DNA from: Gemmatimonadota bacterium | Lineage (GTDB): Bacteria > Gemmatimonadota > Gemmatimonadetes > Longimicrobiales > Gaopeijiaceae | DNA: 41,648 nt | Direction: 5' to 3' | NCBI GenBank assembly: GCA_029863525.1 | Contig: JAOTVL010000014.1 | Coordinates: 1 to 41,648, forward strand | In this document: piece after piece, positions 34,312-40,662 of the stretch | Layout: each line of letters begins with the position of its first letter | Position numbering within the stretch: position 1 is the first letter of the stretch | Position numbers and translations under genes: made by a program | The notes under the pieces: model-generated | Told to the model about the DNA's origin: nothing | The model's input: the letters and a program-made list of their open reading frames with translations, nothing else | Database searches by the model: none

Positions 34312-34549
34312 ATCAGTCAGGTGACTTGCACGCGGCCCAGGCTCGACCTATCGGCGGGTTGCCGGATCAGTGGTCCCCGTGCACGTCCCGTCAATCTTTC
34401 GGCCGATCGTCAATCGCGCAAGCAATCCGCATCCGCAAGTGCCTACCAGGCCCTCCGCGGATGGCGTGACCGGCGCATCGGCTTGCGCACTGGTCTTCTC
34501 GCCGGCAGAGTCACGGCCGAGATGGCCCCGACTCCCGACCGAGGTGCCG

Positions 34550-37500
34550 ATGCGACCCGCGTTGCCGAAATCGATCGTTTCCACCCAGCGCTGTAACACA
34601 CGCCTCGTCCGAGCAGGCTGGGTCGGCACACGGCTCGCCTTCTCGCTCGTCGCGGCGCTCGGCGCCGCGTCCGCGATCGCCGCTCCCCTCGCTGCACAGG
34701 ACGAGCCCACCGACCTCGCCACGCTCTTTGCGCTCGGCACACTGATCTCGGACACGAACGGTGACGACGTCCCCGACTTCGTGAACGCGAGCCTGGTGCT
34801 CGGGGCGAGTCCCACGGTCAGTGCGCAGGCGGCCGCGGCCGAGATCTCGGCACGGCTCGGCTTCGAGACGATGGCGCTCGATCTTCCGCTCGCTCGGAGC
34901 GTCGATGCGGGGACCCCGATCGTGATCGGCCGCGGCGGGTTGGCCGCCTCGGGCGTCTCCGCTCCCGGCATCGATCCCACGTCGCTCGACTCCGGCGAGG
35001 GCGCGGTGACCGTCGCCGAGATCGACGGCCGCACGTGGATCTTCGTCCTCGGGGGCGACGACGACGGACTGCTGGCCGCGGCCAGGCTCTTCGCCGGCGT
35101 GCTGCCGCACACGCGCACGCTATCGACCGCCGACCTGGCGCGCGTGCGCGGCGATTTGGAGCGCGTGCTCACCGCTGCCGGGATCTCCGATGCGACCGTC
35201 CGCCTCACGCAGGCTCGTGCCCGATCGGGCCAGGACGGCATCGCGCGTCTCGTCGTCCGGATCGACACGGCCGATCCAGAAAGCGCCGCCTCCGCGCTCG
35301 AACCGTTGACCAGCGTCGACGGTACGCCTGCTCCCGCGGCGGCCCCGGACAGCGCTCAGGCGGCGGACTCCGCCGCTGTCGCTGCGCCCGACGACCCGCT
35401 CGCCTACCCCGGCCTCGTCTCCGTCGAGGTCCGCCTGACGGGCGGCGAGGTCTTGCGGCTCCCCGGACGAGCCGCCCCGGACACCCCAGGACCCATCGGA
35501 GGGCGTCCGGGGAGCGGCGGCAAGGATGAACTCGACCTCTCGAACCTGTACACTGCAGACGGACTGCTCGGTGGCGGCCCGATCCCCGATCGCGTCGACG
35601 CCATCCTCGTCGCCGACGGCACCGGCATCGACCGGCTGCCCGACCTCGCCGCTCGGCTCGGCCTGGAGTCGACCGGAATGGCGGTCCCGCTCGCGCACCC
35701 CGCGTCGACGGTGGACCGGCCCCGCGCACAGCCGACGATGGTCCTGGCGGGCGCCGATCATCGTCTCACGACGCAGCTCGCCGACAGCGGAAAGATCGAT
35801 CTGGAGGCTCTCGCGCCGGGCGAGGGGTTGATCGAGTTGGTGCCCGACGCGTTCGGCAAGCCAGCGCTCGTGGTGACGGGGGCGGATTCTTCGGGCGCCG
35901 AGCGGGCGCTCGAGCAGGTCTCGCTCACCTTCCCCAACATCGACCCGCGCGGCGACGATCGGCCGACCGTGGACGACGTCGAACGGGACCTCTGGAGCGC
36001 CCTCTCGGGACACAGTCCGATCGGCCAGGCAGCCATCGGGCTGTACAAGCTCGATCGTATCGGTTCGGCCCTCTCCGACCGGACCCTCACTTCAGCGTCG
36101 GTCTTGATCTCCGTCGAGAAGGCCGCGCCCGGATTGGAGGAGGTCGTGACCCGGCGCGCGGCCCAGGCTCTGCGCACGCCGAACATCGACGTCACCGTGG
36201 ACGACCGTGACGTTCTCGAGGCCGCCCCGATCTTCCGCGAGTCGGCGATCTTCCCGTCCGAGGTCGAGCGCTTCTGGCAGCGTTTCCGTTCCGAGGTACT
36301 CCCGGCCGCTTCGTCGGGCGACGCGGTCCGCGTCGAGGCACGCCTGAGCGAGCCCCCGGAGATCCGCGCGCGGATCGAACGCGAGGCACGCGCTGCCCTG
36401 CTCGACGAGGGAGCGGACCCCGGCGGCACGGAGGTGGAGGTCCTGTCGGCCTTCAAGCAAGGCTTCTCCTGGCTCCACGACCGGATCCTTCCCGAGATCT
36501 CCGGGGCCGACATCGGCGAGGTCGTGATCCGCTTCCGCCGTAACGACCCACCCGAGGCCTGGCCGCAGCAGGCGATCAATACCCCGGTGCGATGGCTGCA
36601 CGAGATCTTCCCCATCGACGAGGTCTTCGCGCGGGAATTGGGCGTGGGTCTCGAGCGCATCCGCTTCGAGCAGGTCCTCGAAGGCCCCACGTACGAGGTC
36701 GAGGTCACGGACCGATCGGGTGCGCTCATCCTGGGCGACACCTTCGATCCGAAGTGGGTCCTCCGTCCGTACTTCGACCGTTTCCAGGACTACGAGCAGG
36801 TCCGGGTCACCACCGGATGGCTCACCGCCACGAGCGACGGGGGCACGCTCGTCGACGAGCGAATCGAGACAGACCCCGAAGCGTTCTGGGACTACTTCCA
36901 GAGCACGGTCCTCCCCGCCATGTACGACCACGTGATGGAGCTGCACGACGGGTTGCCGAGAGGCGGGAACGCGGACGCGCCGTTCTTCGGGGAACTGATC
37001 GTGGAGTTGGAGATGAGCGAGCCGAACTACCGGCTCGGCGTCGACAACGAGATCCACGCTCCGATGGACGCGCTCCATGAAGAGATCTACTTCGGGACCA
37101 TCGAGTTCTTCGACGTGCTCGGCCGCAACTCACGCGGTCAGGGGATCACCTTTCCCGGACGGATCGTGCCGGTCATGCGACCGAAGTCCGACGGCGGAGG
37201 CGCAACGGCGGAGATCACGGTAACGGGCTTCGCCACGTCGAGACCGGCCGTGGTCGTGCAGTACGAGACGACGGGCGGAGTCCGAGACGAGCTCCGCCTC
37301 GACATCCCGAAGACGAGTCTGGAGCGGCCGTCGGCTCGGCTCGCTCGCGTGCGAGTCGGCACCCCAGGGCTGACCCACCTGGGCCTGAGAGTCAGGGTCG
37401 ACACGGAACGCGACATGCGCGACAGCCTCGTCACGACCACGCGCGAGCTCTCCGTCGACGAGCGCATGGTCTCCGCCGAGCAGGTCGTCGCGACGATGCG

Positions 37501-38866
37501 TGAGATCGAGGGCCTTCGCGCCGCGGGGCTGTACACCGACGCGCTCGCCTATCAGGGGCTCGGGTCGATCGAGGTGTGGGCCGAGTGGACGCACGAGCAG
37601 GACCCCGAATCGCGCACGGTGGGCACGCTCGCCGCCAATGGCGAGCCCCCCGCGCTGCCCGACTGGCGCTCCCTCCTTCCCCCCGGCTGGAGCTACGGGG
37701 GAGACCGGATCGTGCATTGGGACACGCCGATCCCACCGCCGGAGGGCCATCAGATGCTGGCCAAAATGGCGGCGGCCTTTCCGGAAGCGTCGATGTACAA
37801 GGTCGGGGAGAGCTACCTGGGACGGGACATCTGGGCCCTGGATCTGATGCCTCCCATCCGAGCCAGTCACTGGTCGCGAGTGAAGGCGTCGACGTTCAAG
37901 CCCACGGTCGTGTACTCGGCCCGCCAGCACGCCAACGAAGTCTCGTCGACGAGCCACGTCCTGCGTCACGCCGAGCTGCTTCTGACCGACCCGGAGCAAC
38001 GTCGCAAGCTCGACGCCGTGAACGTGATCGTGCACCCGTTCACGAATCCGGATGGTGCCCAGACCGCGTACGACCTCTACACAATGACTCCGGACTACAT
38101 CCTTCACGCCGGCTATTTGGGGTCGCTCGGTCAGGACGCGACCTCGGGGGGTAGCGACGATCACCCGATCTATCCCGAATCCACGGTACGCGGGCGTCTC
38201 TGGGAGATGTGGCTCCCCGACATCTTCCTGAACCCGCACGGCTACCCCAGCCACCAAGTCGTCCAGCTCTTCTCCGAATACACCGGCCTGGTTCGGCGAG
38301 GACGCGTCACGGAGCGAAACTGGGGCTTCAACAAGGGCTGGTTCATGCCGGGCTTCGGATACGTGGACAGTCCGGAGTTCCCTCGCCACAAAGACGCCGC
38401 GTTTACGATCCGGGACTACATCACCAGGGGCATCAACTCGAATCGCGACGTGTTCGATCTCAACCAGCGGGCGTACGGGCGGTACGAGCGCTACGGTGCC
38501 CGTTTCGATCCGGACGTCTTCAACCTTCCCATGACCGACAGCGTCATGATCGAGATGCCGCTCAAGGGCTCGAGCGGTCAGGGGGGAGGAGGCTACAACC
38601 CGCGGGTGACCATCTGGAGCGGCACCACCGAGGCGCCCGACGAGACCGCGTACGGCCCGTGGATGGAGCTCATGGGCAAGGCCGGGCTGTCGTGGGATCA
38701 GGCGATCACCGACTACCTCTACGACGGAGAACACGAGGTCGAGCGATCGGGCTCGCGCTTCTTCGATGGCGTGTCGCTGCGGATGAACCGGCCCCGCCCG
38801 CCCGAGACGGAGGACGACGACTCCGAGGAGACCGTCGCACCGCCGACCGGTGGAGGCGGGCGATGA
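34550..38866 (+). CDS. Giant exported M14 (carboxypeptidase-like) metallopeptidase
   Basis: 1,438 residues from an ATG with GAGG five bases ahead and a long signal peptide (LAFSLVAALGAASAIAAPLAAQ). The M14 domain is at the C-terminal end: zinc ligands H-A-N-E (His1127, Glu1130) and His1230 in FLNPHGYPSHQ, with NPDG between them, and a candidate general-base Glu1335 in MIEMPLKG. M14 enzymes remove C-terminal residues or cleave peptidoglycan side chains. The first 700 residues are unassigned and contain a duplicated alpha/beta unit (about 55-180 and 345-465): V-P-D-x-V-x-A-x-L-V...A-A-x-L-G-x-E-(T/S)-x-x-(A/M)-x-x-P-L-A, then P-x-(I/M)-V-(I/L)-x-G, G-E-G-x-(V/I), G-x-D. The tail is acidic and Gly-rich. 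A DUF4399 gene follows 70 bases on. Confidence 0.85.
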   Translation: MRPALPKSIVSTQRCNTRLVRAGWVGTRLAFSLVAALGAASAIAAPLAAQDEPTDLATLFALGTLISDTNGDDVPDFVNASLVLGASPTVSAQAAAAEISARLGFETMALDLPLARSVDAGTPIVIGRGGLAASGVSAPGIDPTSLDSGEGAVTVAEIDGRTWIFVLGGDDDGLLAAARLFAGVLPHTRTLSTADLARVRGDLERVLTAAGISDATVRLTQARARSGQDGIARLVVRIDTADPESAASALEPLTSVDGTPAPAAAPDSAQAADSAAVAAPDDPLAYPGLVSVEVRLTGGEVLRLPGRAAPDTPGPIGGRPGSGGKDELDLSNLYTADGLLGGGPIPDRVDAILVADGTGIDRLPDLAARLGLESTGMAVPLAHPASTVDRPRAQPTMVLAGADHRLTTQLADSGKIDLEALAPGEGLIELVPDAFGKPALVVTGADSSGAERALEQVSLTFPNIDPRGDDRPTVDDVERDLWSALSGHSPIGQAAIGLYKLDRIGSALSDRTLTSASVLISVEKAAPGLEEVVTRRAAQALRTPNIDVTVDDRDVLEAAPIFRESAIFPSEVERFWQRFRSEVLPAASSGDAVRVEARLSEPPEIRARIEREARAALLDEGADPGGTEVEVLSAFKQGFSWLHDRILPEISGADIGEVVIRFRRNDPPEAWPQQAINTPVRWLHEIFPIDEVFARELGVGLERIRFEQVLEGPTYEVEVTDRSGALILGDTFDPKWVLRPYFDRFQDYEQVRVTTGWLTATSDGGTLVDERIETDPEAFWDYFQSTVLPAMYDHVMELHDGLPRGGNADAPFFGELIVELEMSEPNYRLGVDNEIHAPMDALHEEIYFGTIEFFDVLGRNSRGQGITFPGRIVPVMRPKSDGGGATAEITVTGFATSRPAVVVQYETTGGVRDELRLDIPKTSLERPSARLARVRVGTPGLTHLGLRVRVDTERDMRDSLVTTTRELSVDERMVSAEQVVATMREIEGLRAAGLYTDALAYQGLGSIEVWAEWTHEQDPESRTVGTLAANGEPPALPDWRSLLPPGWSYGGDRIVHWDTPIPPPEGHQMLAKMAAAFPEASMYKVGESYLGRDIWALDLMPPIRASHWSRVKASTFKPTVVYSARQHANEVSSTSHVLRHAELLLTDPEQRRKLDAVNVIVHPFTNPDGAQTAYDLYTMTPDYILHAGYLGSLGQDATSGGSDDHPIYPESTVRGRLWEMWLPDIFLNPHGYPSHQVVQLFSEYTGLVRRGRVTERNWGFNKGWFMPGFGYVDSPEFPRHKDAAFTIRDYITRGINSNRDVFDLNQRAYGRYERYGARFDPDVFNLPMTDSVMIEMPLKGSSGQGGGGYNPRVTIWSGTTEAPDETAYGPWMELMGKAGLSWDQAITDYLYDGEHEVERSGSRFFDGVSLRMNRPRPPETEDDDSEETVAPPTGGGGR

Positions 38867-38936: not shown

Positions 38937-39377
38937 ATGAAGAACGCAACCACCGCGCTCCTGCTCTCGTTGACCCTCGTTGCATGCGGCGGCGACTCCG
39001 ACACGGATGCCACGCCCGAGACCGAAGAGACGACCGGTACCGTCACCATCGTGACGCCGATGGAGGGCGCGCTCATCAACGGTTCGACCGTCACGGTTCA
39101 GCTGTCGTCGTCCGTGCCGATCGTTCCCGCCGGTGAGCTGACCGAGGGCACGGGCCATCACCACCTGTATCTCGACGCCGACCTGACCCCGGCCGACCAA
39201 CCGGTCCCCACCGTGCCGGGGAGCATCGTCCACATGGGTGATGCGTCGGCGACCTACGTTTTCGAGGGCGTGGCGCCCGGGGAGCACCGGATCATCGCCG
39301 TGGTCGCCGACGGCGTGCACGTCCCGCTTCAGCCGTGGGTCGTCGACACCGTGCGGTTCACGGTCGGGGGCAACTAG
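38937..39377 (+). CDS. DUF4399-domain lipoprotein
   Basis: 146 residues. Signal peptide with lipobox L-V-A-C-G (Cys17), then an acidic Thr/Glu linker (DTDATPETEETTG). The mature domain matches DUF4399 (PF14347): VTIVTPMEGALINGSTVTVQL at the start, GTGHHHLYLD in the middle, and FEGVAPGEHRIIAVVADGVHVPL at the end. The triple His is a typical feature of the family and could bind metal. Function unknown. It is probably co-transcribed with the M14 peptidase. Confidence 0.85.
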   Translation: MKNATTALLLSLTLVACGGDSDTDATPETEETTGTVTIVTPMEGALINGSTVTVQLSSSVPIVPAGELTEGTGHHHLYLDADLTPADQPVPTVPGSIVHMGDASATYVFEGVAPGEHRIIAVVADGVHVPLQPWVVDTVRFTVGGN

Positions 39378-39415: not shown

Positions 39416-39631
39416 CTACGAGAGCTTACGGAAGCCTCCCGTACGCTCGGTCACGACGCGGAAACCGCCGACCTTCGAGGGTACCACCTTCGAGCCGGCC
39501 GGACTGCTGACGTACACCTTGAGGCACGGGGACCCACGGTGCAGGCCGATGGCGGTACCCTCGACGCCGGGCTTGCCCAGCACGCGCCCGTTCAGCTCGG
39601 CCTGAGCGCCCTTGAGATCGGCCCTGGCCAT
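39416..39631 (-). CDS. Stand-alone copy of the neighbouring protease's N-terminal module
   Basis: 71 residues with no signal peptide. The ATG overlaps the stop of the trypsin-like protease (TGATG), so translation is probably coupled. Residues about 19-67 repeat the pattern of protease residues 57-103: G-V-(E/V)-G-T-A-I-G, then L-K-V-Y-(V/L)-x-S-P, P-x-x-V...V-V, and T-G-(G/R)-F. Codon use is as GC-rich at third positions as in neighbouring genes, which favours a real protein. In proteases, free propeptide domains commonly act as inhibitors or chaperones; this is a plausible role here. The alternative is the remnant of a decayed tandem protease gene. Confidence 0.7.
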   Translation of the reverse strand: MARADLKGAQAELNGRVLGKPGVEGTAIGLHRGSPCLKVYVSSPAGSKVVPSKVGGFRVVTERTGGFRKLS

Positions 39632-40662
39632 CAGTTCCCGTCGATGCGGATCCCGAACCGGTCGAGCACCACGTCGATCGGGTTCGCGAGCGTCGAGGTT
39701 GCGGTTCCGGCGAAGAGCAAGCCCACCGGCCGACGGTCGGCCATGAGCAGTCCCTTCGAGACGACGAGCGAGCCCGAGTCACCGCCGGCGCTGAAGCCGC
39801 GGCCCGAGATCACGATCTGACCCTCGAAGCGGGCCTTGCCGTCTCGATAGCCGACGTCGATCGTCGCGTTCAGTCCCGTGACCTGGCCGACCGTGTGTCC
39901 CGTCGTGCGACCGTACTTCTGGACCGACATGCCCAGCTCCGCGTCCGCGCTCCATGACCGCGGCGTCCCGTACCCACCCTCCGGTGTCTCGACCCCCACG
40001 TCGTCCGTCGTCGTCAACGCGATCGCAGCGTCGATCTCGTTCGGCGGGCAGAGCAGGGCCTTACAGAAGCTGATCGGCTCGTAATCGTAGAGGGTGCCGA
40101 TGACATCGTCCGGGTCGCGCCCGCCGTCGACGACGCCGGGTTGCAGGAGGTTGTCTCCGGTTTGGCCGATGTTGTTCGCGGCGAAGATGTGGTTGTTGCT
40201 GAGCGCGAACGTCCGATCGCCGTCGGTGGCGCGAGCTCCGATCGTTCCGGCCGTGACTCTTCCGTGACCGGTGCTGACACCGATCGGGACCGGACGGGGA
40301 AAGCTCTTGGTCGGATCCGCGGCTTCGGCCGACTCAGCCGACATTGGTAGGGCGGTGAAGCGCCCCGTGACCTCCGGGACGACCTGTACGTCGGCAACGA
40401 AGTTGGGGAACGTCGTGATGCCCGGGCTCACCAAGTACACCTTGAGCACGGCCCGCCCGGCGCCGTCCACCCCGATCGCGGTGCCGACCACGCCATCGCG
40501 CGTCAGCCATTCATCCGTGACCTGCTCCTGGAGCGAGAGCGCGGCCTCGAAGGAGGACCGCGAGTAGTCGTACGGGCCGTGAACGCCTGCGTACAGCACG
40601 AGGTCGGCGGCCAAGGCCAGGACCAATGCGAAGCGGGATCGGAGCAAGCGGGTCATGTTCAC
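39631..40662 (-). CDS. Exported trypsin-like serine protease with an N-terminal module
   Basis: 343 residues. A hydrophobic start (FALVLALAADLVLYAGV) predicts export or anchoring. Residues about 50-105 form a small module (GVVGTAIGVDGAGRAVLKVY, then VVPEVTGRF) seen at the front of bacterial trypsin-like proteins related to Nal1-type proteases. The catalytic part follows: His158 in ALSNNHIF, Asp211 in NEIDAAIAL and Ser296 in GFSAGGDSGSLV. Two Cys (200 and 205) may pair. The GTG at 40662 is taken as start; the ATG two codons later is equally possible. The stop overlaps the start of the 71-residue gene that repeats the module. Confidence 0.87.
   Translation of the reverse strand: MNMTRLLRSRFALVLALAADLVLYAGVHGPYDYSRSSFEAALSLQEQVTDEWLTRDGVVGTAIGVDGAGRAVLKVYLVSPGITTFPNFVADVQVVPEVTGRFTALPMSAESAEAADPTKSFPRPVPIGVSTGHGRVTAGTIGARATDGDRTFALSNNHIFAANNIGQTGDNLLQPGVVDGGRDPDDVIGTLYDYEPISFCKALLCPPNEIDAAIALTTTDDVGVETPEGGYGTPRSWSADAELGMSVQKYGRTTGHTVGQVTGLNATIDVGYRDGKARFEGQIVISGRGFSAGGDSGSLVVSKGLLMADRRPVGLLFAGTATSTLANPIDVVLDRFGIRIDGN

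What the first reader, a model, noticed from the sequence alone, without database searches (positions are those of the whole stretch)
39416..40662. Trypsin-like protease translationally coupled to a free copy of its own N-terminal module
The 71-residue downstream gene starts on the protease's stop codon and repeats the pattern of the protease's residues 57-103 (GTAIG, LKVY, SP, VV, TG-F). It lacks the signal peptide that the protease has. A free propeptide-like module made in a fixed ratio to the protease could be a cytoplasmic inhibitor, a folding chaperone, or a regulator, forming a two-gene protease control system. I know of no named system of this form.
Basis: partly seen in the sequence, partly recalled or inferred. 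Interest (0 to 1): 0.75.

Follow-up and report, generated by a model that had tools for sequence, protein, structure and literature searches.

The report
Protease paired with free module partner
A predicted bacterial protein-cutting enzyme is encoded next to a small separate protein resembling the enzyme's own front segment; this pairing recurs in several bacterial phyla, and the small protein is probably a dedicated brake on the enzyme, but no experiment has shown that.

Summary
On the minus strand, 39631-40662 encodes a Nal1-type trypsin-like serine protease with an intact triad and an N-terminal alpha-beta-beta-beta module (residues about 46-103). The next gene, 39416-39631, overlaps its stop codon by one base (TGATG) and encodes the module alone. 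The arrangement is widely conserved. Of 108 distinct module-bearing proteases examined, 94 have a free module directly downstream on the same strand, mostly in Gemmatimonadota but also in Planctomycetota, Pseudomonadota, Chloroflexota, Nitrospinota, Thermodesulfobacteriota and KSB1. The 80 best of at least 546 hits were kept, so that rate is biased upward. One correction: the free gene is not a copy of its own protease's module. Free and N-terminal modules are old, separate paralogues. A cysteine near the second strand is present in 107/110 free modules and 0/106 N-terminal ones. In the window's lineage the free module lacks a signal peptide; elsewhere it is usually an exported lipoprotein. 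Most likely mechanism (inferred, not shown): a propeptide-like trans-acting inhibitor. Exceptions exist: proteases without a free module and free modules without a protease.

The parts
39631..40662 (-). Nal1-type trypsin-like serine protease (343 aa) with N-terminal module
   Evidence: ORF; Pfam Nal1_C 26.6 bits vs cut-off 26.1; rice NAL1 best in PDB by sequence and by fold
40588..40650 (-). basic N-terminus plus hydrophobic segment of the protease: likely signal anchor/export signal (approximate bounds)
   Evidence: sequence TRLLRSRFALVLALAADLVLYAG; equivalent segment in relatives; inference
40354..40527 (-). N-terminal module of the protease, residues about 46-103
   Evidence: HMM; model helix and three strands, pLDDT mostly above 90
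40189..40191 (-). catalytic His (LSNNH), residue 158
   Evidence: invariant in 42 sequences; role inferred from motif
40030..40032 (-). catalytic Asp (IDAA), residue 211
   Evidence: invariant in 42 sequences; role inferred from motif
39775..39777 (-). catalytic Ser (GDSGS), residue 296
   Evidence: invariant in 42 sequences; role inferred from motif
39629..39633 (-). TGATG: protease stop codon overlaps start codon of the free module gene by one base
   Evidence: sequence
39416..39631 (-). free module protein, 71 aa, no signal peptide
   Evidence: model alpha-beta-beta-beta, mean pLDDT 89.6; dN/dS in relatives
39524..39526 (-). Cys36 of the free module, hallmark of free copies
   Evidence: Cys in 107/110 free modules, 0/106 N-terminal modules
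39419..39442 (-). C-terminal tail TGGFRKLS of the free module; the chain ends at a nearly fixed distance after the last strand

Best explanation
The two genes form a protease-regulator unit. The first encodes a membrane-anchored or exported Nal1-type chymotrypsin-fold serine protease that carries an N-terminal alpha-beta-beta-beta module. The second encodes an old paralogue of that module as a separate protein. Most likely the free module docks on the protease much as the N-terminal module does and blocks it, as a propeptide-like inhibitor in trans. Where it has no signal peptide (the window's lineage) it would neutralise protease that folds too early in the cytoplasm. Where it is an exported lipoprotein it would restrain the protease in the envelope. 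Shown: the genes, their homology, conservation, adjacency, selection, the two export classes, and the folds as predictions. Inferred: physical contact, inhibition, and the place of action.
For: Adjacency: free module directly downstream on the same strand in 94 of 108 distinct proteases, 2 upstream, 1 divergent. In the window's family, reading the match table, all but about one of roughly 27 genomes with a full module-bearing protease also have an adjacent free module. No third gene is conserved beside the pair over all lineages. Module and protease are also fused in cis in both orders: N-terminal as here, and C-terminal in L175/L197, a protease without an N-terminal module. Purifying selection on the free gene. 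The free protein ends at a nearly fixed tail TG-x-[FIMV]-R-x-[L/R/W/F] with basic or bulky residues, which would suit a product-like tail in a protease cleft. The best PDB fold match of the free module is the pro region of alpha-lytic protease (2pro_A), but only E=0.054, TM 0.33. Exported free modules mostly have a C-x5-C pair (34/44), leaderless ones almost never (1/48), as expected if they sit in oxidising and reducing compartments. Precedents: Spi (PMC2873492, PMC3462683), SUB1-ProM (PMC6993865), exported lipoprotein inhibitors Bti (PMC3462683).
Against: No contact or inhibition was shown; no complex could be modelled. The N-terminal module is not shown to be a cleaved propeptide. The fold match to an alpha-lytic pro region is weak, and no member of the module alignment matches the Pfam pro-region family. 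Some proteases lack a linked free module (L089, L168, L176/L198, L180-L183), and free modules exist without a detected protease nearby (L061, L192-L196) or fused to beta-propeller-like proteins (L054-L057), so the module cannot only be an inhibitor of this protease. The Cys/export association rests on 3-6 independent contrasts and is not significant after phylogeny.
Confidence: 0.5

Rival explanations
1. The free module is a folding or assembly partner: it helps the protease fold (foldase in trans, like the pro region of alpha-lytic protease) or joins the N-terminal modules in a mixed oligomer.
For: Same fold as the N-terminal module; exported and possibly co-localised with the protease in many lineages; weak fold match to the alpha-lytic pro region, which is a foldase as well as an inhibitor (foldase role from general knowledge).
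Against: In the window's lineage the free module lacks any signal peptide while the protease appears to be exported, so it could not help folding outside the cytoplasm; some proteases of the family have no linked free module.
Confidence: 0.2
2. The module is a general peptide- or ligand-binding domain. The free protein is an adaptor, sensor or substrate of the protease rather than an inhibitor.
For: The module occurs in other settings: C-terminal on beta-propeller-like proteins (L054-L057), four in tandem (L188), and free proteins with no detected protease nearby (L192-L196). The free-only Cys could be a redox or ligand site.
Against: In the Gemmatimonadota sample the free Cys-bearing subfamily is nearly always beside the protease; no ligand site is evident.
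Confidence: 0.22
3. The small ORF is a chance or decaying duplicate of the protease's N-terminus, without a function of its own.
For: Short ORF overlapping the upstream gene; GC-rich genome with many spurious ORFs.
Against: Purifying selection, conservation and adjacency in several phyla, separate ancient clade with its own hallmark Cys.
Confidence: 0.02

Closest known systems
SpeB-Spi of Streptococcus pyogenes
   Same: Secreted protease gene coupled to an adjacent gene for a small protein described as a propeptide analogue that inhibits the protease, thought to act in the cytoplasm on prematurely active enzyme (PMC2873492, PMC3462683).
   Different: Protease is a papain-like C10 cysteine protease; here it is a chymotrypsin-fold Nal1-type serine protease; inhibition not shown here; the free partner here is exported in many lineages.
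Plasmodium SUB1 / SUB1-ProM
   Same: Stand-alone propeptide-like protein encoded in a syntenic locus beside protease genes; shown to inhibit SUB1 potently (PMC6993865).
   Different: Eukaryotic subtilisin fold; no operon; activity proven there and not here.
Staphopain-staphostatin and Bacteroides Bfp/Btp-Bfi/Bti pairs
   Same: Protease gene beside a small inhibitor gene, cytoplasmic in staphylococci, exported or lipoprotein in Bacteroides (PMC3462683): the same split in location as seen here.
   Different: Inhibitors are lipocalin-like beta proteins unrelated to the propeptide; proteases are cysteine proteases.
Alpha-lytic protease / streptogrisin pro regions (PF02983)
   Same: Pro region of a chymotrypsin-fold bacterial protease that folds and inhibits it; top fold match of the free module.
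   Different: Match is weak; no sequence match to PF02983; not encoded as a free gene.
Rice NARROW LEAF 1 (NAL1) and bacterial Nal1-like proteases
   Same: Same protease family by sequence and fold.
   Different: The sequence match covers only parts of the catalytic domain; a matching N-terminal module in NAL1 was not established; no free partner known to me.

Membership tests
Nal1-like trypsin-fold serine protease | Pfam Nal1_C match over the curated cut-off | tested here: met
   26.6 vs 26.1 bits, only just over
Nal1-like trypsin-fold serine protease | His-Asp-Ser triad with GDSG motif | tested here: met
   LSNNH, IDAA, GDSGS invariant over 42 relatives
Nal1-like trypsin-fold serine protease | Fold of solved NAL1 | tested here: met
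   Foldseek E about 7e-15, probability 1.00, TMq about 0.6-0.68
Protease with free propeptide-homologue inhibitor (SpeB-Spi kind) | Adjacent, conserved gene for the partner | tested here: met
   94 of 108 distinct proteases
Protease with free propeptide-homologue inhibitor (SpeB-Spi kind) | Partner homologous to the protease's N-terminal segment | tested here: met
Protease with free propeptide-homologue inhibitor (SpeB-Spi kind) | N-terminal segment is a cleaved propeptide | not testable with these tools
   no protein chemistry; no coordinates or error matrix of the model
Protease with free propeptide-homologue inhibitor (SpeB-Spi kind) | Partner inhibits the protease | not testable with these tools
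   needs purified proteins
Alpha-lytic protease pro region (PF02983) | Sequence profile match | tested here: not met
   no match among 63 modules at E up to 10
Alpha-lytic protease pro region (PF02983) | Fold match | tested here: inconclusive
   best of all PDB chains but E=0.054, TMq 0.33
Staphostatin | Lipocalin-like all-beta fold | tested here: not met
   model is alpha-beta-beta-beta

The most novel reading that the evidence does not exclude
An unnamed module family, present across several bacterial phyla, supplies a dedicated trans-acting inhibitor to chymotrypsin-fold Nal1-type proteases, with an invariant cysteine that lets redox state or compartment set its action: leaderless single-Cys forms in the cytoplasm, exported forms with a disulfide or, in Planctomycetota, possibly a mixed disulfide with the TIGCRV cysteine of the protease.
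Probability: 0.12. Interest if true: 0.8.

Novelty: new variant of a known kind. Interest (0 to 1): 0.6.

Why it matters
The NAL1 family includes a rice protein with many solved structures, and its bacterial relatives have no known control partner that I could find. A conserved free partner found in several phyla, including a cultured isolate (Oceanimonas marisflavi, L169), makes the control of this family testable in vitro. It would also extend the logic of propeptide homologues acting as separate inhibitors to the chymotrypsin fold in bacteria.

Tried and rejected
Pfam and NCBIfam gave no family for the free module. PDB sequence search with the module profile gave only chance hits (ribosomal proteins, E 0.05 and above). 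No plasmid record matches the free protein. Weak module hits at E about 0.003 in the phylum search proved to be chance (L092 LpxC/FabZ-like, L060 penicillin-binding protein, L059 no plausible gene), so its 91 of 298 genomes is an upper bound. Free-module rows placed in such an alignment fall on the N-terminal module. Idea of programmed read-through at the stop codon: rejected, the relative frame and spacing vary between relatives. Idea of a fixed third gene: rejected, neighbours differ between lineages; a DUF4399 lipoprotein gene is shared only by the nearest relatives. Idea of a recent local duplication: rejected by the tree. Family PF02983 is nearly absent from the phylum (1 of 150 genomes), so no profile-profile test against it was possible.

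Full report
What is there. On the minus strand at the right end of the window, 40662-39631 encodes a 343-residue trypsin-like protease, and 39631-39416 a 71-residue protein; the stop and start codons overlap as TGATG. The protease just passes the Pfam Nal1_C cut-off. Its closest solved relatives by sequence are rice NARROW LEAF 1 and, more weakly, bacterial glutamyl, streptogrisin and alpha-lytic proteases. An AlphaFold model (42 sequences, pLDDT 87, pTM 0.86) matches NAL1 best (E about 7e-15). His, Asp and Ser of the triad are invariant among 42 relatives.

The repeated module. A genome-wide search with the small protein finds the protease N-terminus at E=1e-4, and an iterated profile puts it beyond doubt (residues 46-103, E about 1e-20). 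The module is predicted as helix plus three strands, both in the protease and alone (pLDDT 89.6). No Pfam or NCBIfam family covers it.

Conservation of the pair. A sample of 298 genomes of the phylum gave matches in 91; some matches near E=0.003 are chance. I read 60 regions of these genomes and 80 named loci found with the protease alignment. Of 108 distinct module-bearing proteases, 94 have a free module within 400 nt downstream on the same strand, 2 have it upstream, 1 divergent, 1 further downstream and 10 none within the stretch held. From the coordinates, at least L141, L147 and L159 of those ten are cut by contig ends, and L090 looks frameshifted in both genes. Only the 80 best of at least 546 confirmed hits were kept, so the rate applies to relatives near the window's protease. 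In 199 Planctomycetota genomes the module appears in 16 and the link is looser there: L185 and L186 have the pair, L180-L183 have a protease without a neighbouring free module, and L192-L196 have a free module without a detected protease in the stretch read (L194 and L195 are from one genome). In a sample of 198 genomes of the order of Oceanimonas only 4 have a match.

Not its own copy. In a tree of 188 modules, free and N-terminal modules separate with only two label changes against 63 in shuffles; support of the deep branch is weak (70) because the module is short, and the exceptions are the two free modules without the Cys (L073, L080). A Cys before strand 2 is present in 107 of 110 free modules and in none of 106 N-terminal ones. 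So the pair is an old two-gene unit, not a local duplication.

Selection. dN/dS of the free gene is 0.09-0.38 over six groups of relatives.

Where it works. In the window's family the free protein has no signal peptide; in most other lineages it has a signal sequence, usually with a lipoprotein box. Exported copies mostly carry a C-x5-C pair (34 of 44); leaderless ones carry it once in 48 (Fisher p=4e-15). On the tree this rests on only 3-6 independent contrasts and does not reach significance. Ten exported copies lack the pair; eight of these, all in Planctomycetota, keep the single hallmark Cys, and their proteases carry a Cys in the motif TIGCRV or a variant of it. That could mean a mixed disulfide, but TIGCRV also occurs with two-Cys partners (L157, L164, L173), so I only note it.

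Mechanism. Adjacency, co-inheritance, cis fusion in both orders (N-terminal here, C-terminal in L175/L197) and selection make a functional link between module and protease very likely. Inhibition is the most economical role: a module without a signal peptide cannot help an exported protease to fold outside the cytoplasm but could neutralise enzyme folding too early, as proposed for Spi and staphostatins (PMC3462683), and exported lipoprotein inhibitors are known in Bacteroides (PMC3462683). The fixed tail of the free protein and the weak fold resemblance to the alpha-lytic pro region point the same way but prove nothing. Binding, inhibition and stoichiometry are untested.

Known or new. The general form is known: Spi is a propeptide analogue beside the SpeB gene (PMC2873492), and SUB1-ProM is a stand-alone propeptide-like inhibitor beside subtilisin genes (PMC6993865). 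I found no description of such a pair for a chymotrypsin-fold protease in seven searches of the open-access library, which misses most subscription papers. I file it as a new variant of a known kind.

Noticed in passing
L054, L055, L056, L057 (genus g2 of the window's family): The Cys-bearing module is fused to the C-terminus of larger proteins whose sequence looks like a secreted six-bladed beta-propeller (L057), in genomes that mostly also carry the protease pair.
   Followed up: partly
L175 460-1713 (+), same gene in L197 2491-3744 (+): A protease of the same family, in the sampled order of Oceanimonas, has no N-terminal module but one at its C-terminus: a natural permutation.
   Followed up: partly
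L188 3043-4587 (+): Planctomycetota protein with four tandem module-like repeats (weak matches, E 6e-5 to 0.007) and no protease domain recognised.
   Followed up: no
L186 2567-3715 (-), L187 3525-5957 (+): Proteases with an NVxxVxxG-type N-terminal module match the same profile (E 6e-7 and 0.0016), so the module may be part of a much wider family of Nal1-like proteins; L186 also has a free module just downstream.
   Followed up: no
L142, L144, L148-L152, L160, L163, L172: Planctomycetota proteases with a Cys in TIGCRV or a variant; their free modules keep the single hallmark Cys: possible mixed disulfide.
   Followed up: partly
L063, L093 (genus g63): The free module gene lies upstream of the protease gene instead of downstream, without a signal peptide.
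   Followed up: partly
L090 4654-6627 (-): Protease and free module both look broken by frameshifts in the same genome (assembly error or decay).
   Followed up: no
L062, L064, L065, L068, L074, L076, L077: In family f4 the protease has long C-terminal tails, identified as tandem CARDB (Ig-like) domains in L062 and L064, up to about 1,480 residues in all.
   Followed up: no
window 38937-39377 (+): DUF4399 lipoprotein gene convergent with the pair; also beside the pair in the nearest relatives only.
   Followed up: partly
window 34370-38866 (+): Large ORF (1,498 aa) whose C-terminal part looks like an M14-type zinc carboxypeptidase (motifs only).
   Followed up: no
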